Shown here in pieces: positions 4,026 through 62,080 of a stretch of 64,000 nucleotides of DNA. Both the position numbers and the translations under genes were made by a program. The stretch is from Teichococcus aerophilus (lineage in GTDB: Bacteria; Pseudomonadota; Alphaproteobacteria; Acetobacterales; Acetobacteraceae). Location: the NCBI RefSeq assembly GCF_014490485.1, contig NZ_JACTVA010000028.1, positions 1 to 64,000 on the forward strand. The letters are read 5' to 3'. Within the stretch, counting starts at the first letter, position 1. Every line of letters starts with the position of its first letter. A model generated the notes under the pieces. The model did not search any database. It was not told the DNA's origin and saw only the letters and a program-made list of their open reading frames with translations.

Positions 4026-4269
4026 CAAAATGTCCGCAGTGTCCGCATCCGGTAAGCCAGCGCCGGTCAGGGCGGAGCCTTATAAGCCACTGATAATATA
4101 CGGATTATTTTGTGTCTGAAGGCTGGTGGCCTGGCGGTGCGGACAGTGCGGACACTGCGGACAGGATTTCATACCCCTTAGCTGGGGGTGCACCGGGAGC
4201 GCGAATTACCCGCGGCCCCCCACCCCCTGGGAAGGACCCAAGATGGGGGGTGGGGGGAGGGGGGGGTGG

Positions 4270-41750: not shown

Positions 41751-41779
41751 GGCGGGGGGCTTCTGCGGTTTCGGTGGGA

Positions 41780-42029
41780 GGAAGGCCGGGGGAAGAATTC
41801 CCCGGACCCCTTCTTTTTGTCTGCGAGTTTGCCGTTGCGGCCCGAAGCAGGCGCAGGCGCCATGATGATTTTATCAATGGGCCACGCGGGCTGAACACTC
41901 CGTCGCCGGAGGTCCTAGACCTCCGGCGCGAACCGGCCGTGTCTCAAACCGGCCAGGCTCTCCAACAGCCACGCCAGCCAAAACTCGAAAAAGGAAAAGG
42001 GGTCCGGAGAATTTTTCCCCCGGCCTTCC
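41780..42029. repeat. Inverted-repeat terminator cassette, copy 1
   Basis: Left arm (from 41780) with the self-complementary words CCGGGG/CCCCGG, then CCCCTTCTTTTT. The right arm (to 42029) is its reverse complement with small changes. The core hairpin GCCGGAGGTC-CTA-GACCTCCGGC lies at 41905-41927. It sits inside the paa operon between paaD and paaE, the only copy between two co-directional genes. Confidence 0.85.
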
Positions 42030-42078
42030 GCCCCGCCCTCGTGGCGCCACACCCCATTCAGCCCTGACGGGAACGGCC

Positions 42079-43179
42079 ATGTCCGCGACCACGACGACCA
42101 GCACCCCGCGCTTCCACCGCTTGCGCATCGCCGACCTGAAGCGGGAGACGCGCGATGCCGTCTCCATCGCCTTCGAGGTGCCGGCGGAGATGCGGGAACT
42201 TTATGCCTTCCAGCCCGGCCAGTACCTGACGCTGCGTACGACGCTGGAGGATGAGGAAGTCCGCCGTTCCTATTCCATCTGCTCCGGCCCGGATGATGGG
42301 GAACTGCGCATCGCGGTAAAGCAGGTGGATGGCGGCGCGTTTTCCACCTGGGCCAATACGGCGCTGCATGCGGGCGATGAGCTGGATGTGATGACGCCGA
42401 CGGGCCGCTTCGGCGTGGCGCATGCCGCCGGGCAGGCGCGCCTCCATGTCGGCTTCGCGGCGGGGTCCGGCATCACGCCGATCCTCTCCATTGCGCGTGG
42501 CATTCTGGCGCGGGAGAAGGAGAGCCGCTTCTTCCTGTTCTACGGCAACCGCTCCGGTGGCGAGATGCTGTTCCGGGAACAGCTGGAGGAGCTGAAGGAC
42601 CGCTTCCTCGGCCGGCTTTCCGTCTTCCATGTGCTGTCCCAGGAGGAACAGGACATCCCGATCCTGAACGGCCGCCTGGATGGCGAGAAGGTGCGGGTGC
42701 TGCTGCGCCACATCGTACCGGCCGAGCAGGTGGACCACATCTTCGTCTGCGGCCCCACCGGCATGAGCGACGATATCGACGCCACGCTGCGCGAGATGGG
42801 CGTGCCGGAGGACCGCGTGCATATCGAGCGCTTCGTCTCCGCCCTGGGCGGCAAGCCGCGGCCGCGGCCGGTGCCCAGCGTGGCGGAAGCCGGGGCGGCG
42901 CATCGCATGGCCTCCCTGATCGTCGATGGCAATCGGCGGGACGTGAAGGTGGCGGAGGGCGAGGCCATCCTGGACGCCGCCCTGCGCGCCGGGCTGGACC
43001 TTCCCTATGCCTGCAAGGGCGGCATGTGCAGCACCTGCCGCGCCAAGGTGGTGGAGGGCAGCGTGGAGATGGAGGTGAACTACTCGCTGGAGCCGTGGGA
43101 GACCAAGGCCGGCTTCGTGCTGACCTGCCAGGCCCGCCTGACCAGTGAGCACGTGGTGATCGACTACGATCAGATGTGA
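42079..43179 (+). CDS. paaE: Phenylacetyl-CoA epoxidase reductase PaaE
   Basis: 366 residues. The N-terminal FAD domain (RSYSICSGP; QPGQYLTL), NAD-binding part (GFAAGSGITPILSIARGIL; FVCGPTGMSDDI) and C-terminal plant-type 2Fe-2S domain (CKGGMCSTCRAKV with a later CQA) are intact. Passes electrons from NADPH to PaaA. Separated from paaABCD by repeat cassette 1, so its expression may need read-through or its own promoter. Confidence 0.96.
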   Translation: MSATTTTSTPRFHRLRIADLKRETRDAVSIAFEVPAEMRELYAFQPGQYLTLRTTLEDEEVRRSYSICSGPDDGELRIAVKQVDGGAFSTWANTALHAGDELDVMTPTGRFGVAHAAGQARLHVGFAAGSGITPILSIARGILAREKESRFFLFYGNRSGGEMLFREQLEELKDRFLGRLSVFHVLSQEEQDIPILNGRLDGEKVRVLLRHIVPAEQVDHIFVCGPTGMSDDIDATLREMGVPEDRVHIERFVSALGGKPRPRPVPSVAEAGAAHRMASLIVDGNRRDVKVAEGEAILDAALRAGLDLPYACKGGMCSTCRAKVVEGSVEMEVNYSLEPWETKAGFVLTCQARLTSEHVVIDYDQM

Positions 43180-43321
43180 GGACCGGGACGGCGGCCCCGG
43201 CTACCCATAGCGCCAGCGGGGCGGGCCGACCCAGGGTTCCCTTCCTCCCGCGCACCGGGGTCGGGCCGCCCATCCAAACGTGAAGCCTCGCCCCTGCTGC
43301 GCCGGCTGGACCTCTGCGGCT

Positions 43322-44824
43322 ATGCTGCGCCGCATGCGGCGGATATGGGCGTGGATCTGGCGGTGGCGGCGGTGGTTCCGGTGGGGGGTGGGGGCAGGCT
43401 TGCTCATCGCCGCCGGCATCTACGCGGCCCTGTGGCTGGAAGCGCGGGAGGCCCTGCTCTCCAGCGACCCTGAGCGCCGCGCGGCACAGCTGACGCTACC
43501 GGAGCAGGAAAGCGCGGTGATGCTCCGGCTGAACCTGCCACTGGAACTGCTACGCCAGGCGGCGGACCGCGCCCTGCCCGCCGAGTTCCGCCAGACCAGC
43601 CAGGACGGCGCCGCCAGCCGCTACGACATCACCATCCGCCGCACCGGCAACTTCACCCTGTCCGAGGCCGACGGCAAGCTGCGTGCCCGCGCCGGCATGG
43701 CGGTGAACGGCACGGTCGGCCTGGGGGGCGGCCTGGCCAGCTTCCTCGGTCTCGGCGAGAAGAATATCGACGCCGCCGCCGAGGTGGCGGTGGATTTCGA
43801 CATCGGCGCCGATAACCGCTGGTGCCCCTCGGTCGGCATCGTCGTCCACTATGGCTGGACGCGCACGCCGCGGCTGGAAGTCGTCGGCGGCGTCTGGGTC
43901 GGTATCGAGGAACGGGTGAAGGCGCAGGTGGAAACCGCGCTGCGCGGGTTGCCGGACCAACTGCAGGCGCTGCTGCCCTGCTCCGTCATCCGCGAACAGG
44001 CGCTGGCCCTGTGGCAGCCCCGCAGCATCGAGGTACAACTGCCGGCCGCGCCGCCGCTCTATGTCGGCTTCCAGCCGCAATCCATCGGCCTGTCCGAGGT
44101 CACGGTGGAACCGCGCAGTTTGCGGATGATGCTGGGGCTGCGCGCCCGCACCACCATGGCCTCCACCCGCCCCAGGCTGGGGCCGCCCACCACCCTGCCG
44201 GCGCTGCACGCCCTGCCGGAGCGATGGTCCGACCGCGATGGCCGGCTCCGCCTCTCCCTGCCCATCCGCGCCGGCTACGACATGGTGCGGGACTGGCTGA
44301 TGGGCGAGTTCGGCGGGCGGGACATCCCCTTCGTCACGCCGCTCGGCACCGTGCAGCTGCGGGTGAAGCAAATCTTCCTCTACCCCAGTGCCCCTGCGAT
44401 CGCGATGGCGGTGACCTTCGATGTCCGCATGCCCGACCCTTGGCCGGACACTACCGGCCAGGTGGTCTTCTCCGCCCGCCCCGTGCTGAGCCAGGGCGGC
44501 ACGCGGGTCGGCCTGACCGACCTGCGCTTCTCCCGCAACCTGGACAGCGTCACCTGGTCCCTCGCCACCATCCTGTTCGAGCAGCAAATCCGCGACATGC
44601 TGCGCGACGTGGCAGTGTACGACCTGAAGGACGTCATGGACGGCGCCGTCTCCGCCCTTCGCCAGCGCCTGGCCGACCCCAACCTGACCCACGGCCTGCG
44701 CGTCACCCTGACCCGCCCCAGCATCCGGCTGGAGCAGGTGGTGCCGGAGAACGACGCGCTGACCGTGCTGGGCACCGCCGAAGCCGGGATGGAAGCGGAG
44801 ATTACCGCGTTGCCGTTCCGCTAG
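43322..44824 (+). CDS. DUF4403 family membrane-anchored protein
   Basis: 500 residues from the ATG at 43322; a GTG 42 bases upstream extends the frame but adds nothing family-like. A basic/Trp-rich start and one membrane helix (WGVGAGLLIAAGIYAALWL, about 20-38) anchor a large periplasmic domain. NLPLELLRQAADRALP, RTGNFTLSEADGKLRARAGMAVNGTVG and LRVKQIFLYPSAPAIAMAVTFDV fit DUF4403, a likely lipid-binding beta-rich family. Unrelated to phenylacetate; it sits between paaE and the convergent paaK. Confidence 0.82.
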   Translation: MLRRMRRIWAWIWRWRRWFRWGVGAGLLIAAGIYAALWLEAREALLSSDPERRAAQLTLPEQESAVMLRLNLPLELLRQAADRALPAEFRQTSQDGAASRYDITIRRTGNFTLSEADGKLRARAGMAVNGTVGLGGGLASFLGLGEKNIDAAAEVAVDFDIGADNRWCPSVGIVVHYGWTRTPRLEVVGGVWVGIEERVKAQVETALRGLPDQLQALLPCSVIREQALALWQPRSIEVQLPAAPPLYVGFQPQSIGLSEVTVEPRSLRMMLGLRARTTMASTRPRLGPPTTLPALHALPERWSDRDGRLRLSLPIRAGYDMVRDWLMGEFGGRDIPFVTPLGTVQLRVKQIFLYPSAPAIAMAVTFDVRMPDPWPDTTGQVVFSARPVLSQGGTRVGLTDLRFSRNLDSVTWSLATILFEQQIRDMLRDVAVYDLKDVMDGAVSALRQRLADPNLTHGLRVTLTRPSIRLEQVVPENDALTVLGTAEAGMEAEITALPFR

Positions 44825-44838
44825 GGCGTTGGGGGAGA

Positions 44839-45085
44839 GGAAGGCCGGGGAAGGAATTCCCTCGGACCCCTTCTTTTCTTTTTTCGAGTTTCGGGTGGGG
44901 CTGTTAAGAGGGCTTGCTTGAGAGCCGGCTGGGTGCGCCGGAGGTCCTAGACCTCCGGCGACTGACGGTTCAGCCCGCACGGCCCATGATAAATATCATC
45001 AAGCAGCGTTTGCTCTCATCTCTGCAGCGCTTCGCGAAACTCGCAGAAAAAAGAAGGGGTCCGGGGAATTCCTTCCCCGGCCTTC
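44839..45085. repeat. Inverted-repeat terminator cassette, copy 2
   Basis: Same arms as copy 1 (CCCCTTCTTTTCTTTTTTC after the left arm; AGAAGGGGTCCGGGGAATTC in the right). The interior, including the GGAGGTCCTAGACCTCC hairpin, is in the opposite orientation to copy 1. Lies between two converging genes (DUF4403 and paaK). Confidence 0.87.
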
Positions 45086-45109
45086 AACCTTGCTTCCCCT
45101 GCAGGCCAC

Positions 45110-46426
45110 TCAGCCCTTGGGCCGCTGATCCACCACCCGGCGCATCTTGCCCATGGAGCGTTCGACGCCGCCGGGCTGTTCGATGATCACCTTGGTAGTG
45201 ATGCCGATGGTATTCTTGATCTGCTCGACCAACAGCCTGGCCTCGCGCGGCAGGCCTTCGCCGTCCCACAGGCCGGCGTGGCATTCGGTGTGGATGGTCA
45301 TGCAATCCATCCGCCCTTCGGTTGTCAGGCGGATCTGGAAGTGGCCGCTGCACCAATCCTGCGCCAGCAGGGCTTCCTCGATCTGGGAGGGAAAGACGTT
45401 TACGCCGCGCAGGATGATCATGTCGTCGGAGCGGCCGGTCACTTTCTCCATCCGGCGCATGCCGGGGCGGGCGGTGCCGGGCAGCAGGCGCGTCAGGTCC
45501 CGCGTGCGGTAGCGGATGACGGGCTGGCCTTCCTTGGTCAGGGTGGTGAAGACCAGCTCGCCCAGTTCGCCATCCGGCAGCACGGCGCCGGTCTGGGGGT
45601 CGATCACCTCGGGGTAGAAATGGTCTTCCCAGATGTGCAGACCGTCCTTCGTCTCGACGCATTCCTGCGCGACGCCGGGGCCCATGACTTCGGACAGGCC
45701 GTAAATATCGACGGCCTGCATGTCGAAGGCCTGTTCGATCTCATGGCGCATCGCGTTGGTCCACGGCTCGGCGCCGAAGATGCCGATTTTCAGCGAGGAC
45801 TGGCGTGGGTCCAGCCCCTGGCGGCGGAATTCATCCATCAGCGCCAGCATGTAGCTGGGCGTGACCATGATGATCTCCGGCTTGAAGTCGTTGATCAGCT
45901 GCACTTGCCGCTCGGTCATGCCGCCGGACATGGGGATGACGGTGCAGCCCAGCCGTTCCGCCCCGTAATGGGCGCCGAGGCCGCCGGTGAACAGGCCGTA
46001 GCCATAGGCGTTGTGCAGCTTCATGCCGGGCCGGCCGCCGGCGGCGTGGATGCTGCGGGCCATCAGCTCGGCCCAGTTGTCGATGTCGCCCTGGGTGTAG
46101 CCGACGACGATGGGCTTGCCGGTGGTGCCGGAAGAACCGTGGATGCGGGCGATCTTCTCCTGCGGCACCGCCAGCAGGCCGAAGGGGTAGTTGTCCCGCA
46201 GATCGGACTTCACCGTGAAGGGGAACCTGGCGATGTCCTCCAACTCCCGGAAGTCATCCGGGTGGACGCCCGCCGCGTCGAAGCTGCGCTTGTAGTGGGG
46301 GACGTTGTCGTAGGCATGGCGCAGGATCTTCGCCATGCGGTCGCGTTGAAGGGCGCGGATATCCTCGCGCGATGCGTGTTCCACCGCCGAGAAGACGGGG
46401 GGGTGCTGCAGGGAAGCTGCGCTCAT
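45110..46426 (-). CDS. paaK: Phenylacetate-CoA ligase PaaK
   Basis: 438 residues. Activates phenylacetate with ATP and CoA, the entry step of the pathway. The AMP-binding P-loop is RIHGSSGTTGKPIVVGYTQGD. GIFGAEPWTNAMRHEIEQ, DIYGLSEVMGPGVAQEC and the hinge RTRDLT with RRMEKVTGRSDDMIILRGVNVFPSQIE are typical. It follows paaG on the minus strand across a 43-base gap and probably shares its transcript. Confidence 0.97.
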   Translation of the reverse strand: MSAASLQHPPVFSAVEHASREDIRALQRDRMAKILRHAYDNVPHYKRSFDAAGVHPDDFRELEDIARFPFTVKSDLRDNYPFGLLAVPQEKIARIHGSSGTTGKPIVVGYTQGDIDNWAELMARSIHAAGGRPGMKLHNAYGYGLFTGGLGAHYGAERLGCTVIPMSGGMTERQVQLINDFKPEIIMVTPSYMLALMDEFRRQGLDPRQSSLKIGIFGAEPWTNAMRHEIEQAFDMQAVDIYGLSEVMGPGVAQECVETKDGLHIWEDHFYPEVIDPQTGAVLPDGELGELVFTTLTKEGQPVIRYRTRDLTRLLPGTARPGMRRMEKVTGRSDDMIILRGVNVFPSQIEEALLAQDWCSGHFQIRLTTEGRMDCMTIHTECHAGLWDGEGLPREARLLVEQIKNTIGITTKVIIEQPGGVERSMGKMRRVVDQRPKG

Positions 46427-46469
46427 GGTGTTGGTTTCCTCCGTCTTCTTTGTTCAGTCTTGCTTGGTT

Positions 46470-47255
46470 TTACTCGGATTTTTGGCCGAAGCGGGGCGGC
46501 CGTTTTTCCATGAAGGCGCGTACACCCTCGGCATAGTCGGCGGAGCGGCCGGCGCTGCGCTGCAGGTCACGTTCCAGGTCCAGCTGCGCGTCCAGCGTGT
46601 TACCGTGTGAGGCTTCCAGCGCCTGCTTGATGCGGGCGAGGCCTTCGGTGGATTGCGCGGCCAGCCGTGCGGTCAGGTTCTCGGCTTCCAGGGTCAGCCG
46701 GTCGTCGTCCACTGCCTGCCAGATCATGCCCCATTCGGCGGCGGTGGTGGCGGGCAGCGGCTCGGCGGAGAACATCAGCGCCTTGGCGCGCGCTTCGCCG
46801 ATCAGACGCGGCAGCATGAAGGTGCCGCCGGAATCCGGCACCAGCGCGATCTTGGAGAAGGACTGGATGAACCTGGCCGATTTCGCCGCCAGCACGATGT
46901 CGCAGGCCAGGGCCAGGTTGGCGCCCGCGCCGGCCGCCACGCCGTTGACGGCGCAGACCACCGGCTTCGGCAGGGCGCGGATGCGGCGCACCAGCGGGTT
47001 GTAGAAACGCTCCAGCGTGTTGCCGAGATCGGGGGCCTCCCCGGGCTTGCGGTCGCCCAGATCCTGGCCGGCGCAGAAGCCACGGCCTTCACCGGTCAGC
47101 AGGATGGCGCGGCAATCGGCGGCGTCCGTAGCCTCGCCCAGCGCGGCGTAGAGCGCGGCGTGCAGGGCCTCGTTGAAGGAATTCAGCTTCTCCGGCCGGT
47201 TGAGCACCAGCTTGTGCCAGCCATCACGCTTCTCGACCTTCAGGACCTGTTCCAT
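46470..47255 (-). CDS. paaG: 1,2-epoxyphenylacetyl-CoA isomerase PaaG (crotonase family)
   Basis: 261 residues from the ATG at 47255, which has GGAGGAAAC upstream; the longer frame lacks a site. Crotonase fold: GRGFCAGQDLGDRKPGEAPDLGNTLERFYNPLVRRIRALPKP, VAAGAGANLALACDI oxyanion hole and PDSGGTFMLPRLIG active-site loop, the pattern of PaaG. Isomerises the ring epoxide to oxepin-CoA. Divergent from the hydratase-dehydrogenase fusion gene with a perfect TetR-type operator between them. Confidence 0.94.
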   Translation of the reverse strand: MEQVLKVEKRDGWHKLVLNRPEKLNSFNEALHAALYAALGEATDAADCRAILLTGEGRGFCAGQDLGDRKPGEAPDLGNTLERFYNPLVRRIRALPKPVVCAVNGVAAGAGANLALACDIVLAAKSARFIQSFSKIALVPDSGGTFMLPRLIGEARAKALMFSAEPLPATTAAEWGMIWQAVDDDRLTLEAENLTARLAAQSTEGLARIKQALEASHGNTLDAQLDLERDLQRSAGRSADYAEGVRAFMEKRPPRFGQKSE

Positions 47256-47336
47256 CCCGTTTCCTCCCATGTCTCGCGGCCGACCATGGATGGCTTTTCC
47301 GCAAGGCCGCAAGCGGGCGGCGCATTATTCCTTGCA

Positions 47337-47356
47337 TTGACCGTCCGGACGGTCAA
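47337..47356. promoter_or_regulatory. TetR-type operator site B (paaG / paaH-paaZ)
   Basis: TTGACCGTCCGGACGGTCAA, a perfect 20-bp palindrome, in the divergent gap. TTGCAT (47332-47337) and AATAAT (47357-47362) frame it as -35/-10 on the plus strand, so binding would block the promoter. Confidence 0.82.
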
Positions 47357-47463
47357 ATAATTTCGTGCGGCTGGATGCAAAGCCTGTGTGCAGGTGCAGC
47401 ATCTTGCCAAGCAGGGGACAAGCACCGAACCTGTGTCCAAACCTACGGAGAGGAAGCAGACAC

Positions 47464-49560
47464 ATGGACAACACCGGCAACCCGGCCGTCTCGATCACGC
47501 GCCAAGGCGGCGTGGCGGTGGTGCAGGTCAGCTACGCCCCTGTGAATGCATTGTCCCGCCCCGTGCGGCAGGGGCTGCTGGAAGCGGCGCGGCGGCTGGC
47601 GGCGGATGCGTCGGTGCAAGCCGTCGTGCTGCATGGCGGGGCCGGGCGCTTCATCGCCGGCGCCGACATCAAGGAAATGGACCTGCCGCCGGATGAGCCG
47701 GTGTTGCCGGACGTGGTGGCGGCGCTGGAGGCCATCCCGCAGCCGGTGGTGGCCGCTATCGATGGCGTGGCCCTGGGCGGCGGGCTGGAAATCGCCCTGG
47801 CCTGCGACCTGCGGCTGGCGGCGCCGAAGGCGAGTGTCGGCCTGGTAGAAACGCGGCTGGGCATCATCCCCGGCTCCGGCGGCACGCAGCGTCTGCTGCG
47901 GTTGGTCGGTACCGCCAAAGCGATCGAGCTGATCGGCCAGGCCAAGGTGCTGAAGGCGCCGGACGCGGTGGCGCTTGGCATCCTTGACGAGGTGGTGGAA
48001 GGCGATCTGCTGGCGGAGGCGATCCGCAGGGCACCGCTGGCCGCCAAGCGCCGCGTCTCCGTCCTGCCCATGCCGCCGCGCGACGAGGCGGCGGAGGAAG
48101 CGGCGGCCCAGGCGGCGGTGAAGCAGGCGAAGGGCGTGCCCGCTGTCGCCGCCGTGGCCATGCTGTTGCGGGAGACGGCCGGGCTGGCCTTCCCCGAAGG
48201 CGTGCGGCGGGAGCGGGAGATGTTCCTGCCGCTGCGGGCCAGCCCGGAAGCCGCCGCGCTGCGTCACCTGTTCCTGGCGGAGCGGGAGGCATCCCGCGTG
48301 CCTGGCCTGGAAGGCGTCGCGCCCCGCAAGGTGGAGCGCGTGGCGGTGATCGGCGGCGGCACCATGGGCAGCGGCATCGCCGTGGCCGTGGCCGATGCCG
48401 GGCTGCTGGTGCATGTCGTGGAGCGCGACGCGGACGCCGCCGAAGCCTGCGCCGCGCGGCTGCGCGATACCTACGGCAAGCAGGCCAAAAGCGGCCGGTT
48501 GACCGAGGCCGTGGCCGCCGAGCGCCTGGGGCGCATCACCCCCGTGCACGACTGGAACGTGCTGGCGGAGGCCGACCTGATCATCGAGGCCGCGTTCGAG
48601 GAAATGGGCGTCAAGGCCGATATCTTCGGCCGCATTGATGCCGCCGCGAAGCCGGGCGCCGTGCTGGCGACCAACACCTCCTACCTGGACCCCGATGCCA
48701 TCGCCGGCTTCACCAGCCGGCCGCAGGACGTGCTGGGGCTGCACTTCTTCGCCCCTGCCAACATCATGAAGCTGCTGGAAGTGGTGCGCTGCGCCAAGAC
48801 GGCGCCGGACGTGCTGGCCACCGGCATCGCCTTCGGCAAGAAGCTCGGCAAGCTGCCGATCGTTTCCGGCGTGTGCGAGGGCTTCATCGGCAACCGCATC
48901 TACGCGGCCTACCGCCGCCACGCCGAGTATCTGGTGGCCGATGGCGCCAGCCCGCGCGAGGTGGATGCGGCGATGGAGGCCTACGGCTTCGCCATGGGCA
49001 TCTTCGCCGTCGGCGACATGTCGGGGTTGGATATCGCCTGGGCCATGCGCAAGCGCCGCGCCGCCACCCGCCCGCCCGGCGAACGCTACGTCACCATTCC
49101 TGACAAGCTGTGCGAGGCCGGGCGGCTGGGCCGCAAGACTGGTGCCGGCTGGTACGACTATGCCGGCGGCAAGGCGCAGCCCGACCCGGCTGTCGACGCC
49201 ATCATCGCCGCCGAACGCGCGGCCGCCGGCATCACCCCGCGCAGCTTCACGGCGGAAGAGATCCAGAATCGGCTTCTGGCCGTGATGGCGAATGAAGGCG
49301 CCAAGATCGTGGCCGAGGGCATCAGCCTGCGGCCATCCGACATCGACCTGGTCTTCACCAATGGCTACGGCTTCCCGCGCCTGAAGGGCGGGCCGCTCTT
49401 CGCCGCCGACCAGCGCGGCCTGGGGCCGGTGCTGGCCGAGGTGGAGGCCGCCGCCCAGGCCGGTGGCAGCGGTGCGGAGCCCGCGCCCCTGCTGCGGGAA
49501 CTGGCCGAGAACAACAGCACCTTCAAGGAATGGCAGCGCGGGCGCGCGACGCCCGGCTGA
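47464..49560 (+). CDS. paaH: Bifunctional enoyl-CoA hydratase / 3-hydroxyacyl-CoA dehydrogenase (PaaF/PaaH role)
   Basis: 698 residues. The N-terminal crotonase domain (about 10-190) has GGAGRFIAGADIKEMD and GVALGGGLEIALACDLR, with GIIPGSGGTQRLLRLVG carrying the catalytic Glu-site region. The 3-hydroxyacyl-CoA dehydrogenase (from about 290) has VAVIGGGTMGSGIAVAVADAG, TNTSYLDPDAIAG, GLHFFAPANIMKLLEVV and GFIGNRIYAAYR. This is the FadB/FadJ-like fusion and can do both the PaaF hydration and PaaH oxidation steps. Immediately upstream of paaZ (25-base gap). The symbol reflects pathway role. Confidence 0.9.
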   Translation: MDNTGNPAVSITRQGGVAVVQVSYAPVNALSRPVRQGLLEAARRLAADASVQAVVLHGGAGRFIAGADIKEMDLPPDEPVLPDVVAALEAIPQPVVAAIDGVALGGGLEIALACDLRLAAPKASVGLVETRLGIIPGSGGTQRLLRLVGTAKAIELIGQAKVLKAPDAVALGILDEVVEGDLLAEAIRRAPLAAKRRVSVLPMPPRDEAAEEAAAQAAVKQAKGVPAVAAVAMLLRETAGLAFPEGVRREREMFLPLRASPEAAALRHLFLAEREASRVPGLEGVAPRKVERVAVIGGGTMGSGIAVAVADAGLLVHVVERDADAAEACAARLRDTYGKQAKSGRLTEAVAAERLGRITPVHDWNVLAEADLIIEAAFEEMGVKADIFGRIDAAAKPGAVLATNTSYLDPDAIAGFTSRPQDVLGLHFFAPANIMKLLEVVRCAKTAPDVLATGIAFGKKLGKLPIVSGVCEGFIGNRIYAAYRRHAEYLVADGASPREVDAAMEAYGFAMGIFAVGDMSGLDIAWAMRKRRAATRPPGERYVTIPDKLCEAGRLGRKTGAGWYDYAGGKAQPDPAVDAIIAAERAAAGITPRSFTAEEIQNRLLAVMANEGAKIVAEGISLRPSDIDLVFTNGYGFPRLKGGPLFAADQRGLGPVLAEVEAAAQAGGSGAEPAPLLRELAENNSTFKEWQRGRATPG

Positions 49561-49585
49561 CCCAAAGACACAGGATGGGAACACC

Positions 49586-51622
<2,037 letters not shown>

Positions 51623-51647
51623 GGCGGCGGGAGGCGCTGCTTGGGGG

Positions 51648-51892
51648 GAAGGGAGGGCCGGAGAAAGAATTCCCCGGGCCCTTCTTTTTCTGCGGGTCTG
51701 GCGGGGCGCTTCAGGACTGAGCGGGCGCTGCTTGACGATTTTCATGATGGGCCACGCGGGCTGAACTCTCAGTCGCCGGAGATTAAAAGCTCCCTTCGCA
51801 CCAGTTGGCCTTGAGTCCAACGTCTCAACGGCCCCACCAGCGAAAGCTCGAAGAAGAAAGAAGGGGCCTGGGGAATTCCTTCCCCAGCCTTC
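51648..51892. repeat. Inverted-repeat terminator cassette, copy 3
   Basis: Arms conserved (AGAATTCCCCGGGCCCTTCT left; AAAGAAGGGGCCTGGGGAAT right). The interior keeps GCTTGACGATTTTCATGATG and the GGGCCACGCGGGCTGAAC word, but the central hairpin is degraded (GGAGATTAAAAGCTCC). Lies between converging paaZ and the Lrp-type gene. Confidence 0.85.
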
Positions 51893-51919
51893 TTTCCCAA
51901 CCTGACACCATTCAGCCGT

Positions 51920-52390
51920 CTAAAGCGGCAAGGCCGACGTGTTCTTGATCTCCCGCAGCGCGAAGTGCGAGGAGATGTGCTGCACCGCCGGGTTCACGAA
52001 CACGACTTCCTGCAGGAAGCGTTCGTAATGCGCGGCATCCTTGACCACGGCGCGGATGATGTAGTCGGCGCTGCCGGTCATGGAGAAGCATTGCAGCACT
52101 TCGGGCCGTTCCAGGATGGCCTTCTCGAAATCCTGCAAGGCGTCCCGGTTGTGCTTGGCCAGGGTGACGTTGGCGTAGACGGTCTGGCCGTACCCCAGCT
52201 TTGCCGCATCCAGCCGCGCGACGTATTCCAGGATCACCCCGGCATCCTGCAGCGCCTTCAGCCGCCGCCAGGTGGGGGAGGTAGAGAGGCCGATGGCGTC
52301 CGCCAGCTCCTGCACGCTCTGCCGCGCGTTCTTCTGTAGCGAGGCCAGGATGGCGCGCTCGAACTGATCCAGTTCCGGCCTGTCAGGCAT
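51920..52390 (-). CDS. Lrp/AsnC-family regulator (BkdR-like)
   Basis: 156 residues from the ATG at 52390 (AAGGA 7 bases upstream); longer in-frame starts run into the upstream palindrome. Lrp HTH: LDQFERAILASLQKNARQSVQELADAIGLSTSPTWRRLKALQDAGVI. The RAM ligand domain has VLQCFSMTGSADYIIRAVVKDAAHYERFL. Divergent from the branched-chain 2-oxoacid dehydrogenase genes, the place of BkdR, which activates bkd operons in response to branched-chain amino acids. Confidence 0.9.
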   Translation of the reverse strand: MPDRPELDQFERAILASLQKNARQSVQELADAIGLSTSPTWRRLKALQDAGVILEYVARLDAAKLGYGQTVYANVTLAKHNRDALQDFEKAILERPEVLQCFSMTGSADYIIRAVVKDAAHYERFLQEVVFVNPAVQHISSHFALREIKNTSALPL

Positions 52391-52413
52391 GGCAACTTCC
52401 TTGAGATTCAGAT

Positions 52414-52431
52414 CGGGCATGAACATGCCCG
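52414..52431. promoter_or_regulatory. 18-bp palindrome in the lrp/bkd gap
   Basis: CGGGCATGAACATGCCCG (8-bp arms, AA centre) lies 23 bases before the Lrp-type start and between the divergent genes. Candidate regulator-binding site or leader hairpin. Confidence 0.5.
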
Positions 52432-52581
52432 AATGATCAGGTGTTGGTTCAGGATCATGCCCAGGAAGAGGCATTGCGGGCAAGAATGAGAAGGGTTTTG
52501 CCGCTACGCCGGGCCTAGGCTGATCTCAACGCATCGCCGGCCGGGGAAACCTGAAGCCAGGCTTTCAACAGGGAACGGACC

Positions 52582-54678: not shown

Positions 54679-54680
54679 GC

Positions 54681-55877: not shown

Positions 55878-55898
55878 GGCGGTGCTTGCTTGGAGGTA

Positions 55899-56215
55899 GA
55901 AGGCTGGGGAAGGAATTCCCCAGACCCCTTCTTTTTTCTGCGAGTCAGGGTTGGCGCCTGGCGGCACAAGGGCGCGCCTTTTGTGATGATCTATAGGGGC
56001 GCGTGGAACGAGCGCTGAGCGTCTCTGTCATGGATTGAAGCAGCCGAAGACGCGCACCACACGTCAGACATAAGTCTGACGACAGGCAGTTTTCTTCATT
56101 CGGGCGGACCGCAGCTATCTGGCTTAGCCTTGCTGTACACCAGTCCAACCTGCCCAAAGCCGCCGCTAAACTGATAGAAAGAAGATGGGGTCTGGGGAAT
56201 TCCTTCCCCAGCCTT
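55899..56215. repeat. Inverted-repeat terminator cassette, copy 4 (diverged interior)
   Basis: Arms are clear (AAGGCTGGGGAAGGAATTCC left, then CCCCTTCTTTTTTCTGCGAG; AGATGGGGTCTGGGGAATTC right), but the interior is longer and unrelated apart from TGATGATCTAT. It carries another hairpin, CGTCAGAC-ATAA-GTCTGACG at 56062-56081. Lies between converging E2 and livF and fills that gap of more than 300 bases. Confidence 0.82.
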
Positions 56216-56239
56216 TGTGCTTCGCAGCTGGCCGGACGA

Positions 56240-56971
56240 TCACACCGACACGGCAGACCGAACGCCCAGGTAGGATTCCACAATCCGCTGGTCCGCTTGC
56301 AACGCGTCCGGCTCGCCTTCCAGCATCACCCGGCCGCTTTCCAGCACGTAGCCGTAATCGGCGATGCGCAGCGCCGCACGGGCGTTCTGCTCCACCAGCA
56401 GGATGGAGACGCCGTTGTCCCGCAGGTTGGAGGCGGTTTGCAGGATCTCCCGCACGATCAGCGGGGCGAGGCCGAGGCTGGGTTCGTCCAGCATCAGCAG
56501 GCGGGGCTCGCCCATCAGCGCGCGGGCCATCGCCAGCATCTGCCGCTCGCCGCCGGAGAGGGTGCCCGCAAGCTGGCGGCGGCGTTCCTTCAGGCGGGGG
56601 AACAGCGCCCACATCTCGTTCAGCATCGGCTCGGCGCTGCCCTGGTGGCGCAGCCGGAAGCGGCCGAGGCGCAGGTTGTCCTCCACGCTCATGCTGTAGA
56701 ACAACTCGCGCTTTTCCGGCACCAGGCTCAGCCCGTCATTGACGCGGGCCTCGACGCTCTCGCCGCCCAGGGCACGGCCGGCGAAGTGAATGGCGCCCCC
56801 TGCCGGTACCACGCCCATGATGGCGTTGAGCAGGGAGGATTTTCCGGCACCGTTCGGCCCCAGGATGGTGACGATGCTGCCCTTCGGCACGGACATCGAG
56901 ACGTCGGAAACGGCGATGATTGCGTCATAGGCCACGTGCAGCGCCTGCACGTCCAGGATCGGCTGGGTCAT
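56240..56971 (-). CDS. livF: Branched-chain-type ABC transporter ATP-binding protein LivF
   Basis: 243 residues. Walker A ILGPNGAGKSSLLNAI, signature LSGGERQMLAMARALM, Walker B LLMLDEPSLGLAPLIV and switch VEQNARAALRIAD are intact. MTQPILDVQALHVAYDAIIAV is the normal LivF start and the ATG overlaps the upstream stop (56968-56971). In this neighbourhood a phenylacetate or aromatic-acid substrate is as likely as an amino acid. Confidence 0.9.
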   Translation of the reverse strand: MTQPILDVQALHVAYDAIIAVSDVSMSVPKGSIVTILGPNGAGKSSLLNAIMGVVPAGGAIHFAGRALGGESVEARVNDGLSLVPEKRELFYSMSVEDNLRLGRFRLRHQGSAEPMLNEMWALFPRLKERRRQLAGTLSGGERQMLAMARALMGEPRLLMLDEPSLGLAPLIVREILQTASNLRDNGVSILLVEQNARAALRIADYGYVLESGRVMLEGEPDALQADQRIVESYLGVRSAVSV

Positions 56972-58764
56972 GCGGCGGTTCCCAGATAGGCGTCGATGAC
57001 GGCGGGGTTGCCCTGGATATCCTTGGGGCGGCCCTGCGCCAGCTCGGCACCGAAATTCATCACCACCAACCGGTCGGTCAGGTTCATGACGAAGTCCATG
57101 TCGTGCTCCACCAGCAGGATGGTCATGCCGTCCTGCCGCAGCCGGTCCAGCAACCTGGCCAGCGCTGCCTTTTCCAGGTGGCGCAGGCCGGCGGCAGGCT
57201 CGTCCAGCAACAGCAGCACCGGGTCCAGGCACAGCGCGCGGGCAATCTCCACCAGCCGCTGCTGGCCGAGCGAGAGGTCATCCGCCACCAGATGCGCGCA
57301 TTGCGCCAGCCCGACGCGGTGCAACTGCTGCCAGGCCAGGGCGAAGATGCGGGCTTCCTCGGCCCGGTCCAGGTGAAGTGCGGCGCTCAGCGGCCCGGCG
57401 GCGCCGCGCAGGTGGGCGCCGAGCGCCACGTTGTCCAGCACCGACATGCCGCGCACCAGCTTCACGTGCTGGAAGGTGCGGGCCACGCCGCGGGTGGCGA
57501 TGTGGCGCGCCGTGCTGCCGCAGATCTCCTCGCCCAGGAAAGCGACGTTGCCCTTGGTCGCGGCCAGAACGCCGGTCAGCAGGTTGAAGGTCGTGCTCTT
57601 GCCGGCGCCGTTGGGGCCGATCAGCCCCACCACCTCGCCGGCATTCAGCGTGAAGCCGACATTGTCCACCGCCACCAAGCCGCCGAACTGCTTGCGCAGC
57701 TCGCTGGCGCGCAGCACCTCCGCGCCACGGGCCGGCTGGGCGCGCAGCGGCAGTGGCGGGGCCTCGCTGATAGGCGGCACCGGCGCCTCGGCCGGCCTGG
57801 GCAGCAGGCGGGAGACCAGCTTCATCAGGTGCGGCCACAGCCCCTGCGGGGAGAATTGCAGGATCAGGATCAGCAGACCGCCGAATACGATGGTCTCGAA
57901 ATTGCCCTGGGCGTTCAGCAGCCATGGCAGCAGCGTCTGCAACTGGTCCCGCAACAGGGTGACAATGGCGGCGCCCAGCAATGCACCGCCGATATTGTGC
58001 ACGCCGCCCGCCACGGCCATCAGCAGGTAGTCGATGCTCATGTTGATGCCGAAGGGGGAGGGGTTCACCGCGCGTTGCAGATGGGCGTAGAGCCAGCCGG
58101 ACAGCCCGGCCAGCACGCCGGCATAGACGAAGGCCAGCACGCGGGCATTGAAGGTGTTCACGCCGAAGGATTCGGCGGCCAGCGCGCCGCCACGCAGCGC
58201 CCGCACCGCGCGCCCGGCGCGGCTGTCCAGCAGGTTGCGCGTCAACAGGATGGCCAGCACGACGCAGGCGAGCACCAGCCAGTAGAAGTTCATGCTGCGG
58301 GCGAAGTCGATGCCGAACAGCGTGATGGCGGGGATGCCGCTGATGCCGTCATTGCGCTGGAAGAAGTCCAGATTGCCTGCCAGGTAGAAGAAGCTGACAT
58401 TCCAGGCGATGGTGGCGATGGCCAGGTAGTGCCCCTTCAGCCGCAGCGTGATGGCGCCGATGCCCCAGGCCAGCAGGCCGGAGACGACCAGCGCGACCGG
58501 AAGCGTCGCCCAGGGGGAGAAGCCATAGCGCGTGGTCAGGATGGCCGTGGTGTAGGCACCGAAGCCGACGAACATCGCCTGGCCAAAGGAGGTCAGCCCG
58601 GCCACGCCCACCAGCACCACCAGGCCCAGCGCCACCAGCGCGGACAGCCCGATATAGCTGAGCAGCGTGACCCAGAAGGGCGGGAAGCCCGGCAGCAGCG
58701 GCGCCAGGATGGCGAGTGCGAGCAGCAGCAGCGCCACGGCGCGGTGGGCGGCGGACATGCTCAT
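56968..58764 (-). CDS. Fused ABC permease/ATPase (LivM-LivG)
   Basis: 598 residues. The LivM-type permease half (1-310) has about eight membrane helices and LVVLVGVAGLTSFGQAMFVGFGAYTTAI and LKGHYLAIATIAWN. A Pro/Ala-rich linker (315-345) leads to the LivG-type ATPase: Walker A LIGPNGAGKSTTFNLLTGV, FLGEEICG, RTFQHVKLVRGMSVLDNV, signature LSLGQQRLVEIARAL and Walker B LLLLDEPAAGL. A single-chain LivM-LivG is a known arrangement. Overlaps both neighbours by 4 bases. Confidence 0.92.
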   Translation of the reverse strand: MSMSAAHRAVALLLLALAILAPLLPGFPPFWVTLLSYIGLSALVALGLVVLVGVAGLTSFGQAMFVGFGAYTTAILTTRYGFSPWATLPVALVVSGLLAWGIGAITLRLKGHYLAIATIAWNVSFFYLAGNLDFFQRNDGISGIPAITLFGIDFARSMNFYWLVLACVVLAILLTRNLLDSRAGRAVRALRGGALAAESFGVNTFNARVLAFVYAGVLAGLSGWLYAHLQRAVNPSPFGINMSIDYLLMAVAGGVHNIGGALLGAAIVTLLRDQLQTLLPWLLNAQGNFETIVFGGLLILILQFSPQGLWPHLMKLVSRLLPRPAEAPVPPISEAPPLPLRAQPARGAEVLRASELRKQFGGLVAVDNVGFTLNAGEVVGLIGPNGAGKSTTFNLLTGVLAATKGNVAFLGEEICGSTARHIATRGVARTFQHVKLVRGMSVLDNVALGAHLRGAAGPLSAALHLDRAEEARIFALAWQQLHRVGLAQCAHLVADDLSLGQQRLVEIARALCLDPVLLLLDEPAAGLRHLEKAALARLLDRLRQDGMTILLVEHDMDFVMNLTDRLVVMNFGAELAQGRPKDIQGNPAVIDAYLGTAA

Positions 58765-59810
58765 TCCTCCCCTTCATCCAGCAGCGCGGGTGTGCGCCAG
58801 GAGCGCCACAGCAGCACCGGGATGATGATCATGAACACCAGGACTTCCTTGAAGGCGCTGGCATGGAAGGAGGCGAAGCTCTCGACGAGGCCGATCAGGA
58901 TGGCGCTGGCGGCGGCCAGCGGGTAGCTGACCAGCCCGCCGATCACCGCGGCGACGAAGCCCTTCAGGGCGATCAGGAAGCCGGTGTCGTAGTAGATCGT
59001 GGTCATGGCCGAGATCAGGATGCCGCCCAGCGCGCCGATGCTGGCCGCCAGGGTGAAGGCCACATGGCCGCACAGCGCCGGGGAGATGGCGACCAGCTGG
59101 GCGCCCAGCCGGTTCACCGCCGTGGCCCGCAGCGCGCGGCCCATCAGCGTCCGCTCGAAGAACAGGAACAGCGCCACGATCAGCGCCAGCGTCACCAGCA
59201 CCACCACGATGGACTGCCCGCTGATGAACAGCGGCCCGATCTCCAGCGTCGTGTCCGCCAGGCTCTGGGTGCGGGAGCCCTCCGAGCCGAAGAACACCAG
59301 CCCGAGGCCCTGCAACGCCAAGTGCAGCGCCACGGAGACGATCAGCAGCACCAGCACGCTGGCATCGGCCATCGGCCGGTAGACGACGTCGTAGAGATAC
59401 GGCCCCATCGGCGCCACGATGGCCAGCGCCACCAGCACCTTGACGAGTTGCGGCGCCTGCCAGTGGATGCAGGCCCAGGCCAGGCCCGCCACCACCACCG
59501 GCAGCAGCAACGATGTTCCGATCTGCCAGGCGACCGAGCGCATCGTCGCGTGGCGGCGGGAGGCCCAGAGCCGGCAGGCGGCGGAGGCAACGCCCAGGAT
59601 GCCCAGCAGCCACACCGTGCCCGGCAGCGTGCCGGTCTCCAGCGCCGCCAGGGTCAGTGCGCCAAAGGCGACGAACTCGCCGATCGGCACCAGGATGACG
59701 CGGGTGACGGTGAAGACGATGACAAGCGCCAGGGCGAGAAGGCCGTAGATGGCACCGTTGACGATGCCATCCTGGACGAGAACGAGAAGAATCGAGAGGT
59801 CCACGGCCAT
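58761..59810 (-). CDS. livH: Branched-chain-type ABC transporter permease LivH
   Basis: 349 residues. MAVDLSILLVLVQDGIVNGAIYGLLALALVIVFTVTRVILVPIGEFVAFGA is the LivH N-terminus; about eight helices. SDLT-like loops are replaced by MGRALRATAVNRLGAQLVAISP, and GILISAMTTIYYDTGFLIALKGFVAAVIGGL closes the core. It has an insert of about 50 residues with Trp/Arg (LWASRRHATMRSVAWQIG) relative to classical LivH. Overlaps the fused permease/ATPase gene by 4 bases. Confidence 0.9.
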   Translation of the reverse strand: MAVDLSILLVLVQDGIVNGAIYGLLALALVIVFTVTRVILVPIGEFVAFGALTLAALETGTLPGTVWLLGILGVASAACRLWASRRHATMRSVAWQIGTSLLLPVVVAGLAWACIHWQAPQLVKVLVALAIVAPMGPYLYDVVYRPMADASVLVLLIVSVALHLALQGLGLVFFGSEGSRTQSLADTTLEIGPLFISGQSIVVVLVTLALIVALFLFFERTLMGRALRATAVNRLGAQLVAISPALCGHVAFTLAASIGALGGILISAMTTIYYDTGFLIALKGFVAAVIGGLVSYPLAAASAILIGLVESFASFHASAFKEVLVFMIIIPVLLWRSWRTPALLDEGEE

Positions 59811-59843
59811 TCCCCGGCGATGGTCAGGACGACAGGAGCCGGC

Positions 59844-60995
59844 TTACCGCGGCAGCGCTTGCCAGGTGCCATCCTTGATGATGGCCATCACGCGCGCCCG
59901 CTCATCCTGGCCGACATGGTCGGTGGCGGACATGTTGGCGACGCCGTTGACGTAGGTGACGTCCCGCAACCCCTCCAGCGCATCGCGCAGGGCGGTGCGG
60001 AACTCCGGCGTGCCCGGCTGCGCGGTGCGCAGCGCCACCGGCAGGGCGCGCTGCAACAGCAACCCGGCATCGTAGGCATAGGACCCGAAGGCGGAGACGC
60101 TGTTGGCGCCATGCGCCGCCTCATAGGCATCGCGGTACTGGCGGGCGATGGTGCGCGAAGGATGGTTCTCGGGCAGTTGGTCGGCCACCGTCACCGGCGC
60201 CACCGGCAGCACGGTGCCTTCCACGTCACGCCCGCCGACGCGCAGGAAATCCGCGTTGGCGACGCCATGCGTCTGGTACATCGGGCCGCGATAGCCACGC
60301 TCCCGCAGCGCCTTGGCTGGCAACGCGGCCGGTGTGCCGGCGGAGATGATGAACACCGCGTCCGGCCGCGCCGACAGCACCTTCAGCGTCTGGCCGGTGG
60401 CGCTGGTATCGGTGCGGGCATAACGCTCGGTGGCGACGACGCGGATACCGCGCGCCTCCAGCAGCGGCGCCATAATGCCGAGCCAGCCATCGCCATAGGA
60501 ATCACTGACGGCGATGACGCCGAGGGACTTCACCCCGGCCGCGGCCATGTGCTCCACCACCGCGCCGGCCATCAGCGCATCGTTCTGCGCGGTCTTGAAC
60601 ACCCAGCGGCGGCGCTCATCCACGGGCGTCACGATGGCGGCGGAACCGGCCAGCGAGATCATCGGGATGCGCTGCTCGGCCGCGACCTCCACCATGGCGA
60701 TCGAGGCGGGGGTGACGGTGGAGCCGATGATGGCATCGACCCGGTTGTCGCTGATCAGCTTGCGCATGTTGGTGACGGCGCGGGTGGTGTCCGACCCGTC
60801 GTCCAGCACGATCCATTCGATGGGCCGGCCTTCGATCTCGCGCGGCAGCAGGCGGATGGAACGGCCTTCAGGAATGCCCAGGGAGGCGCCAGGCCCGGTT
60901 TCGGAGATGACGACGCCGACCCGCACGGGATCGGCCGCCTGCGCGGCCGTGGTGAGACCGAGCGCCAGCATCAGGCCGGCGGCAAGCTTCCGCAT
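59844..60995 (-). CDS. Periplasmic substrate-binding protein of the Liv-type transporter
   Basis: 383 residues from the ATG at 60995 (AAGGAGGG upstream). Signal peptide MRKLAAGLMLALGLTTAAQA, cleavage near residue 20. Peripla_BP_6 fold: VRVGVVISETGPGASLGIPEGRS, VDAIIGSTVTPASIAMVEVAAEQRIPMISLAGSAAI and SAFGSYAYDAGLLLQRALPVA. First gene of the transporter operon; the TetR-type operator C lies 58 bases upstream, placing it in the same regulon as paaG, paaZ and paaI. Substrate likely phenylacetate or a related aromatic acid (inference). Confidence 0.9.
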   Translation of the reverse strand: MRKLAAGLMLALGLTTAAQAADPVRVGVVISETGPGASLGIPEGRSIRLLPREIEGRPIEWIVLDDGSDTTRAVTNMRKLISDNRVDAIIGSTVTPASIAMVEVAAEQRIPMISLAGSAAIVTPVDERRRWVFKTAQNDALMAGAVVEHMAAAGVKSLGVIAVSDSYGDGWLGIMAPLLEARGIRVVATERYARTDTSATGQTLKVLSARPDAVFIISAGTPAALPAKALRERGYRGPMYQTHGVANADFLRVGGRDVEGTVLPVAPVTVADQLPENHPSRTIARQYRDAYEAAHGANSVSAFGSYAYDAGLLLQRALPVALRTAQPGTPEFRTALRDALEGLRDVTYVNGVANMSATDHVGQDERARVMAIIKDGTWQALPR

Positions 60996-61052
60996 CGACT
61001 TTCCCTCCTTGGACATTGTGGGAGCTTCTGGGGCCCCATACAGTCTGGAGAA

Positions 61053-61072
61053 TTGACCAGCCGGTCGGTCAA
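61053..61072. promoter_or_regulatory. TetR-type operator site C (transporter operon)
   Basis: TTGACCAGCCGGTCGGTCAA, palindromic apart from two pairs. On the minus strand TTGATT overlaps it as a possible -35. It controls the transporter operon, 58 bases from its start. Confidence 0.78.
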
Positions 61073-61106
61073 ATCAAGGTCTTTCCGGGTCGGTTCCAGG
61101 GTTGCA

Positions 61107-61126
61107 TTCACCGACCGAACGGTCAC
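61107..61126. promoter_or_regulatory. TetR-type operator site D (TetR gene itself)
   Basis: TTCACCGACCGAACGGTCAC, a looser copy of the same motif. TTGCAT (61102-61107) and TAAATT (61127-61132) frame it exactly as at site B, which suggests autorepression. Confidence 0.72.
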
Positions 61127-61197
61127 TAAATTATGCGGGCGCTACCGGCGCCCCAAGCAGGAACCAGGCCGCAGAGCGGTCTGCGCAGGGGTGGGGC

Positions 61198-61806
61198 ATG
61201 GCTCGGACACGGGCAGATGATTACGACGAGAAGCGGCGGCAGATGCTGAAGAATGCCGCCAGCCTGTTCGCGCGGCACGGCTTCACCGGCACCTCCATCA
61301 CCATGGTGGCGAATGCCTGCGGCGTCTCCAAGGCGTTGCTCTACCATTACTATGAGTCGAAGGAGGAAGTGCTCTTCGACATTCTCCAGTTGCACCTGGA
61401 AACGCTGCTGGAAACGGTGGACCAGGCCTTCGCCTCCACCACTGAACCACGCGCCCGCCTGCACGCGCTCTCCGCCGCCCTGCTGGAAACCTATCGGGAC
61501 GCGGATGCCGAACACCAGATCCAGATCGCCAACCTCCAGCTGTTGCCGGAAGAAAAGCAGGCCACGTTGCGGGAGCTGGAGCGCCGCATCGTCGCCCTCT
61601 TCGCCGAAGCGATCGGCGAGGCGCTGCCCGAGGTCAAGGGCAGCCGCGTGCTGCTCAAGCCGCTGACCATGTCGCTCTTCGGCATGCTGAACTGGAGCTA
61701 CCTGTGGTTCCGCGACGGCCGCGGCCTGACCCGCGAAGCCTATGCCCGCCTGGCGACCGAGCTGCTGCTGGCCGGCGCCACGCGCGCGGTGGCGGAGGTG
61801 GATTGA
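61198..61806 (+). CDS. TetR/AcrR-family regulator (PaaR-like)
   Basis: 202 residues from the ATG at 61198. The N-terminal HTH is RRQMLKNAASLFARHGFTGTSITMVANACGVSKALLYHYYESKEEVLFDIL. The ligand domain ends with a TetR_C-like segment, MSLFGMLNWSYLWFRDGRGLTREAYARLA, as in regulators of acyl-CoA or phenylacetate catabolism (PaaR, FadR-type TetR). Divergent from the ABC transporter, with two operators between them and further sites at paaI and paaG/paaH. The likely effector is an acyl-CoA intermediate of the pathway. Confidence 0.88.
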   Translation: MARTRADDYDEKRRQMLKNAASLFARHGFTGTSITMVANACGVSKALLYHYYESKEEVLFDILQLHLETLLETVDQAFASTTEPRARLHALSAALLETYRDADAEHQIQIANLQLLPEEKQATLRELERRIVALFAEAIGEALPEVKGSRVLLKPLTMSLFGMLNWSYLWFRDGRGLTREAYARLATELLLAGATRAVAEVD

Positions 61807-61830
61807 AGGGCTTGGCCTGGGAAAGGTGAG

Positions 61831-62080
61831 GGTAAGGCCGGGGAAAGAATTCCCCGGGCCCCTTCTTTTTTTCTGCGAGTCTGCGTCTCGCTAGAGGCGA
61901 TGAGCGGACGCTGCTTGATGATTCTAAAGAGGCCACAAGTACTGAACCGTTAGTCGCCAGCGGTCTAGGACCTCCGGCGCACCCAGCCGTCTTCCAAGGC
62001 CGCCCCATCAACAGGTCCGCCTGAAAACTCGAAAAGAGAAAGAAGGGGTCCGGGGAATTCCTTCCCCGGCCTTCCTTACC
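61831..62080. repeat. Inverted-repeat terminator cassette, copy 5
   Basis: Arms GGTAAGGCCGGGGAAAGAAT (left) and the reverse of this word at the right end; CCCCTTCTTTTTTTCTGCGAG follows the left arm. The core hairpin is partly degraded (CGCCAGCGGTCTAGGACCTC). It has the same interior orientation as copies 1 and 3 and lies between the converging TetR gene and a solute-binding protein gene, filling that 326-base gap. Confidence 0.87.

What the first reader, a model, noticed from the sequence alone, without database searches (positions are those of the whole stretch)
41780..62080. A family of about 250-bp inverted-repeat cassettes, five copies within 20 kb
Seen at 41780-42029, 44839-45085, 51648-51892, 55899-56215 and 61831-62080. 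Each arm is itself a palindrome (CCGGGGAA...TTCCCCGG) followed by CCCCTTCTTTTT, that is, an intrinsic terminator; the right arm is the same on the other strand. Between them lie a conserved interior (GCTTGATGATTTTATCATG-like, GGGCCACGCGGGCTGAAC-like) and a hairpin core. Four of five lie between converging genes. Copy 2 has its interior reversed relative to copies 1, 3 and 5, as if the interior flips or the element inserts either way. None occur in the first 41 kb, including the island. I do not know a described family that matches.
Basis: partly seen in the sequence, partly recalled or inferred. Interest (0 to 1): 0.78.

Follow-up and report, generated by a model that had tools for sequence, protein, structure and literature searches.

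The report
Double-terminator repeat cassettes between genes
This bacterium carries several hundred copies of a roughly 250-base cassette made of two inward-facing hairpins that look like transcription stops, usually around a shared core, found in about four of ten sampled gaps between genes that run towards each other; it looks like a spreading repeat that now ends many genes.

Summary
Five cassettes lie at the stated places and belong to a large family: 659 directional arm sites in the 5.66 Mb genome, 0 for the reversed pattern. In 830 kb sampled, 89 inward-facing pairs make up 2.9% of the DNA and occupy 46 of 111 convergent, 37 of 457 tandem and 5 of 107 divergent gaps. Folded window arms form a bulged stem with an NGAA loop and a U-tract; one stem pair uses all four Watson-Crick types. 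Four of five window copies share a core with a palindrome kept through base changes; copy 4 does not. The core occurs in 10 of 17 genomes of the genus and in a second genus, partly with other arms. In relative G006, 9 of 17 matched gaps lack a cassette and 5 hold the core with other, mixed or truncated arms. No RAYT transposase in the own genome; no target duplication established. Best reading: a MITE-like repeat whose arms act as paired terminators. Termination, movement and mobilizer are inferred, not shown.

The parts
41779..42029 (+). Cassette 1 (type A): arms 41779-41830 and 41981-42029, core 41861-41946 (+); between two tandem + genes
   Evidence: arms; core 86.1 bits; flanking genes; matched gap in relative G006 is 27 nt without the cassette
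44838..45085 (-). Cassette 2 (type A): arms 44838-44891 and 45037-45085, core 44919-45003 (-); between converging DUF4403 and AMP-binding enzyme genes
   Evidence: (98.4 bits); matched gap in relative G006 is 63 nt with a simple hairpin and no cassette
51651..51894 (+). Cassette 3 (type A, decayed core palindrome): arms 51651-51691 and 51845-51894, core 51731-51814 (+); between converging Aldedh/MaoC and AsnC-type genes
   Evidence: (57.2 bits)
55898..56215 (.). Cassette 4: same kind of arms (55898-55945, 56174-56215) but a different, longer interior and no type-A core; between converging 2-oxoacid_dh and ABC_tran genes
   Evidence: no core match
61831..62076 (+). Cassette 5 (type A): arms 61831-61880 and 62025-62076, core 61914-61996 (+); between converging TetR-type and SBP_bac_5 genes
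   Evidence: (72.8 bits)
45037..45085 (-). Example arm read on the - strand: stem with a 3-nt ACC bulge, NGAA tetraloop and U-tract; terminator-like for the gene at 45110-46426
   Evidence: Fold -21.2 kcal/mol, z -1.38 against shuffles
44936..44960 (.). Core palindrome of cassette 2, CGCCGGAGGTCCTAGACCTCCGGCG
   Evidence: family D6; helix with both-sided changes in 61 core copies

Best explanation
It is a high-copy, non-coding repeat family of one lineage of Acetobacteraceae (the genus that includes Pseudoroseomonas cervicalis). A copy has two inward-facing hairpin-plus-U-tract arms around an interior that usually holds a conserved palindromic core. Each arm ends transcription coming from the gene behind it, so that in a convergent gap the pair stops both genes before they collide. 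Shown here: the sequences, their arrangement, their place at gene ends, arm and core palindromes kept through base changes, and positions that differ between species. Inferred: that the arms terminate transcription in the cell, and that copies spread as a non-autonomous, MITE-like element moved by an enzyme not identified here, with the core as a likely recognition or protein-binding site.
For: Copy number far above chance (659 vs 0; 286 vs 0). Cassettes occupy 46 of 111 convergent, 37 of 457 tandem and 5 of 107 divergent gaps (Fisher p 2e-11 against divergent, 1e-15 against tandem; home-made gene calls). Of 203 placeable own-genome arms 154 run in the direction of the gene behind them, median 30 nt from its stop. 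Four window arms fold as a stem with NGAA loop and following U-tract. Stem pair 6/23 is CG, TA, GC or AT, paired in 191 of 205 arms against 113 expected if independent; in 32 of 88 elements the two arms differ there yet each pairs within itself. Of 100 own-genome neighbour pairs of arms within 1 kb, 89 face inward. In G006, 9 of 17 matched gaps have no cassette, and by eye one element is nested in the core of another. In a P. cervicalis plasmid a lone arm fits between two converging annotated genes, 3 and 4 nt from them.
Against: No RNA data. A plain terminator scan finds nothing at copy 2, where the bulge breaks its rule, and the arm folds are only 1.4-2.0 sd better than shuffles. Mismatches show no strand preference, which RNA-level selection would predict: G-U 33 vs A-C 41 in arms, 33 vs 27 in the core. 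The direction bias of arms is not significant in G006 (18 of 28), G007 (22 of 35) or G014 (5 of 8). No mobilizer: no Y1_Tnp in the own genome, and the five genes scanned inside the two wider inward arm pairs are no transposases. No clear target duplication; flank complementarity was not above mismatched pairs (z 0.7). Copies are not recent (51 copies: median pairwise identity 78%, maximum 92%). With no outgroup, the gaps without a cassette could be losses in G006.
Confidence: 0.6

Rival explanations
1. A purely selfish MITE-like repeat: it survives in convergent gaps because insertions elsewhere are harmful, and its hairpin-U-tract arms are terminal inverted repeats that merely resemble terminators.
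For: The same logic was argued for pneumococcal repeats (PMC3049150, passages). Cassettes are AT-richer than the sampled genome (59.1% vs 68.9% GC). Arms and core are conserved while linkers vary, which transposition requirements alone could give. Mismatches show no strand preference.
Against: Lone arms of the same kind lie near gene ends in other species of the genus, as ordinary terminators would. Other terminator-like hairpins replace the arms around the same core (by eye).
Confidence: 0.25
2. A host terminator family that spreads by ordinary duplication and gene conversion, without transposition; the core is a passenger or a nucleoid-protein or gyrase site, as proposed for BIMEs (recalled).
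For: No mobilizer found (limited search); arms of the same kind exist singly in the genus; in 4 of 17 matched gaps both species have a core-bearing cassette.
Against: 89 pairs in 830 kb in one species against few arms in most of its genus, 9 matched gaps without a cassette and a nested copy suggest insertion of whole units.
Confidence: 0.2
3. REPINs moved by a RAYT transposase.
For: Paired inverted hairpins at gene ends, lone and paired units, hundreds of copies.
Against: The consensus arm begins GGGAAGGCCGG, without a GTAG or CGTC tag; no Y1_Tnp in the own genome and one weak hit in 12 genomes of the genus.
Confidence: 0.03
4. A structured small RNA gene repeated many times.
For: The core helix keeps pairing through base changes, and one core copy folds better than shuffles (z -3.27).
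Against: Arms facing in from both sides should keep outside transcription from the interior (inference); no promoter-like site at copy 2; no Rfam match there; no strand preference in the core.
Confidence: 0.05

Closest known systems
SPRITE of Streptococcus pneumoniae (terminator-like interspersed repeat)
   Same: Dispersed repeat with a hairpin and U-rich tract, enriched between converging genes and near 3' ends (PMC3049150, passages).
   Different: SPRITE is a single hairpin with 30 copies in the strain described; here two inward-facing arms surround an interior with a conserved core, in hundreds of copies in an unrelated high-GC lineage. Sequences were not compared.
REP / REPIN / BIME elements
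   Same: Extragenic palindromes, single or paired inverted, high copy (PMC3733652, passages; BIME roles recalled).
   Different: No GTAG or CGTC tag, no RAYT found in the own genome, longer arms with U-tracts that point inward.
Prokaryotic MITEs (Correia, ERIC, RUP and others)
   Same: Under 500 bp, terminal inverted repeats, AT-richer than the genome; nesting is known among such repeats (review PMC10969869, passages).
   Different: No parent transposon and no target duplication established; the core is shared between copies with different arms.
DNA-uptake-sequence terminators of Neisseria
   Same: One short sequence family that also forms terminators across a genome (mentioned in passages of PMC3049150 and PMC2267715).
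   Different: The unit here is about 50 nt with its own U-tract; a role in DNA uptake was not tested.

Membership tests
REPIN / RAYT system | GTAG (or CGTC) tag at the foot of the hairpin | tested here: not met
   Consensus of 51 type-A copies begins GGGAAGGCCGGGG
REPIN / RAYT system | RAYT (Y1_Tnp) gene in the genome | tested here: not met
   0 matches in G000; 1 weak match in the 12 genomes of the genus searched
MITE | Terminal inverted repeats and length under about 500 bp | tested here: met
   89 of 100 neighbouring arm pairs face inward; median length 250, 54 of 89 within 235-262 bp; pairs were sought only below 520 bp
MITE | AT-rich relative to the genome | tested here: met
   Mean GC 59.1% of 89 cassettes against 68.9% of the sample
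MITE | Target site duplication | tested here: inconclusive
   Matched gaps in G006 too diverged; one possible TCATG/TCACG pair at C49:9814, by eye
MITE | Parent transposon with the same ends | tested here: inconclusive
   Two inward arm pairs of 0.52-6 kb in the sampled DNA; the genes scanned inside them (1 and 4) are no transposases; about 85% of the own genome was not read
MITE | Presence/absence at matched sites | tested here: inconclusive
   9 of 17 matched gaps have no cassette in G006; gain or loss not told apart
Intrinsic terminator | GC-rich stem-loop followed at once by a U-tract | tested here: met
   Folds of four window arms, with bulges; a strict scan without bulges is negative at copy 2
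Intrinsic terminator | Termination in the cell or in the test tube | not testable with these tools
   No expression data
SPRITE | Sequence relation to SPRITE | not tested
   No alignment made; the resemblance is architectural
Rfam families | Covariance model match | tested here: not met
   Window 41000-63000: two matches up to E 1, both below the gathering score and neither at a cassette

The most novel reading that the evidence does not exclude
A mobile double terminator: a selfish repeat whose ends are working terminators has re-terminated about 40% of the convergent gene pairs of one species, with a conserved core that keeps its identity across two genera while the terminator arms around it are exchanged for other types.
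Probability: 0.35. Interest if true: 0.78.

Novelty: new variant of a known kind. Interest (0 to 1): 0.62.

Why it matters
If true, terminators of a whole genome are being replaced by a spreading element. That would give hundreds of natural, half-diverged copies in which termination strength, insulation between converging genes and the spread of small repeats can be measured together. It is also a case where a repeat's ends turn over while its core persists, which the usual picture of MITEs (fixed ends, free middle) does not expect. The conserved core with no known mobilizer is a direct lead to an undescribed enzyme or binding protein.

Tried and rejected
Insertion into existing terminator hairpins: by eye the flanks looked complementary, but matched flanks scored no better than mismatched ones (47 elements, z 0.71, 0.25, 0.40 and -1.04 in four settings); the purine-rich 5' flank (70% purine) can instead pair with the arm's own U-tract, as in one folded arm. 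REPIN/RAYT: rejected. GAATTC as a genome-wide signal: it exceeds the base-composition expectation outside arms too, but by eye the sites outside arms look coding. Autonomous copy: the two wider inward arm pairs enclose a methyltransferase-domain gene and four metabolic genes. Lone arms in the own genome: many of the 26 first listed have a diverged or alternative partner by eye, some do not. Arm variants with a 20-22 nt inverted repeat at the bulge: 4 found by a strict search of the own sample. Plasmids: matches only in three P. cervicalis plasmids; phages: none.

Corrected on the way: the first gene calls labelled window copy 1 as convergent; the figures used come, where one gene set, without five short weak calls that overlap cassettes, serves for both the cassettes and the background. 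An earlier count with two gene sets gave 46 of 116, 37 of 452 and 5 of 112.

Rows dropped: 275 of 286 arms kept for the stem counts; 91 of 101 interior hits listed after removing partial ones, those crossing a locus end and those with N, and 61 of these 91 chosen by hand for diversity; 5 of 210 own-genome arms inside called genes and 2 not placeable; 1 of 89 pairs at an edge.

Full report
OBSERVATION. Each is a pair of arms of about 50 nt in inverted orientation. Copies 1, 2, 3 and 5 match a core model at 57-98 bits, copy 2 on the - strand; copy 4 does not match. Four lie between converging genes; copy 1 is tandem. No arm is found before 41779.

SCALE. In the own genome (G000, 5.66 Mb) the directional arm pattern with up to 3 mismatches occurs 333 + 326 times, the reversed control 0. 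An arm HMM on 1.58 Mb from four genomes gives 286 hits at E<=1e-3 and 0 on the reversed sequence: 210 in 830 kb of G000, 32 in 348 kb of G006, 36 in 200 kb of G007, 8 in 200 kb of G014. In G000, 89 inward-facing pairs (below 520 bp) cover 24,094 of 829,921 bases; 54 of them are 235-262 bp long, median 250. Simple scaling gives about 600 pairs for the genome. This is rough: contigs were partly chosen because they held strong copies, and density varies from 45 to 420 arms per Mb.

PLACE. With one set of home-made gene calls, cassettes occupy 46 of 111 convergent, 37 of 457 tandem and 5 of 107 divergent gaps, one cassette per occupied gap, 1 of 89 at an edge. Of 203 placeable G000 arms 154 run in the direction of the gene behind them, median 30 nt from its stop. 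In G006 (18 of 28), G007 (22 of 35) and G014 (5 of 8) this bias is not significant; median distances there are 18.5, 4 and 6 nt. In an annotated P. cervicalis plasmid a lone arm fills the gap between two converging genes; in another an arm lies between tandem genes.

ARMS. Four window arms fold as a stem with an NGAA tetraloop and a U-tract after the stem, with a 3-nt bulge in three of the four minimum-energy folds; they are 1.4-2.0 sd better than shuffles. In 205 G000 arms pair 6/23 is CG 121, TA 33, GC 26, AT 10, paired in 191 against 112.9 expected if independent; 32 of 88 elements have arms that differ there while each pairs within itself. The other inner pairs hardly vary and say little. 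This favours a hairpin within each arm over pairing between arms. Against an RNA-only reading, G-U and A-C mismatches are equally common (33 vs 41); repair of palindromes during replication could also keep stems perfect (inference).

CORE. In 61 hand-chosen core copies from three genomes (G000, G006, G007) the main helix pairs in 92.8% of cells, with both-sided changes at 5 of 11 pairs, two of them in 18 and 19 sequences. For the whole 15-pair structure there are 47 both-sided cells against 18.4 in shuffles (0 of 500 reach it) and at most 11 when slid; the number of pairs with such a change (6) is not above shuffles (4.6; 107 of 500 reach it) or slid versions (4-7). G-U 33, A-C 27: no strand preference. 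Among 51 full type-A copies pairwise identity is 0.58-0.92, median 0.78, with arms and core more conserved than the linkers, so this is not a fresh burst.

MODULARITY. An interior HMM gives 101 hits, 0 on reversed sequence: G000 56 with both standard arms and 9 without one or both; G006 8 with both, 12 with one, 12 with none; G007 3 with both and 1 with one. By eye, many of the G006 copies lacking standard arms have other hairpin arms. The core is found in 10 of 17 genomes of the genus, own included (at most 150 candidates scored per genome). In the family 7 of 120 match: G000, G006 and two genomes of a second genus strongly, three others with one weak hit each that by eye is no cassette. In a class-wide set only G000 matched, 1 of 190, with stricter filters. 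Of three loci of the second genus read by eye, two clearly show terminator-like arms of other sequence around the core. The arm pattern occurs in 16 of 17 genomes of the genus: 659 in G000, 58 in G007, 45 in G006, 0-14 elsewhere; with another pattern and 2 mismatches it occurs in 7 of 200 genomes of the family. In G014 the 8 arms have no partner within 1 kb, several with an A-tract before them; in G007 13 of 15 pairs are 132-188 bp. This suggests a series from lone terminator to paired terminators to cassette with core, but no tree was built.

GAIN AND LOSS. Of 48 collinear gaps between the sampled G000 and G006 DNA, 17 hold arms in G000; 1 of the 17 also has an arm hit in G006. By eye and from the interior hits: in 9 the G006 gap is 110 nt or less and has no cassette, among them both window cassettes tested (copies 1 and 2); some of these gaps hold a simple hairpin, and at C54:43351 a neighbouring gene is missing too. 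In 5 the G006 gap holds the core with other, mixed or truncated arms, and in 4 of these 5 G000 has a core-bearing cassette as well. 3 are unresolved. One type-B element sits by eye inside the core of a type-A element. Gain and loss were not told apart. A relative closer than G006 may exist.

MOBILIZER. No Y1_Tnp match in G000. Two inward arm pairs of 0.52-6 kb lie in the sampled DNA; the one gene scanned in the first matches a methyltransferase domain and the four in the second are metabolic. About 15% of the own genome was read, and other transposase families were not searched.

TAXON. G009 of this genus is identical over 1620 bases to P. cervicalis ATCC 49957, which by eye holds a short two-armed cassette.

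LITERATURE. Search listings. Passages seen: PMC3733652, PMC12306157, PMC10969869, PMC2267715, PMC3049150. No description of this family was found there; most subscription journals are not in the library.

Noticed in passing
G000 contig C1:1-200000 (L086-L095): Only 9 arms in 200 kb (45 per Mb) against 319 per Mb in the other sampled contigs of the same genome; possibly a plasmid or a recently acquired replicon.
   Followed up: partly
window 1-26000: Sparse native-looking gene calls and lower GC in parts (0.60 at 6-12 kb), with no cassettes; would fit an acquired island.
   Followed up: partly
C97:64085, C97:109971, C97:121363 (L045, L047, L048) and C54:42591 (L058): Elements with one arm in which a 20-22 nt perfect inverted repeat takes the place of the bulge, so that the arm could fold as a three-way junction.
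   Followed up: partly
window 3941-4163: Tandem 9-nt TGCGGACAC-type repeats with a nearby inverted copy.
   Followed up: no
G006 loci such as L138 and L150: Runs of 20 N inside palindromes in several G006 copies; left as they are.
   Followed up: no
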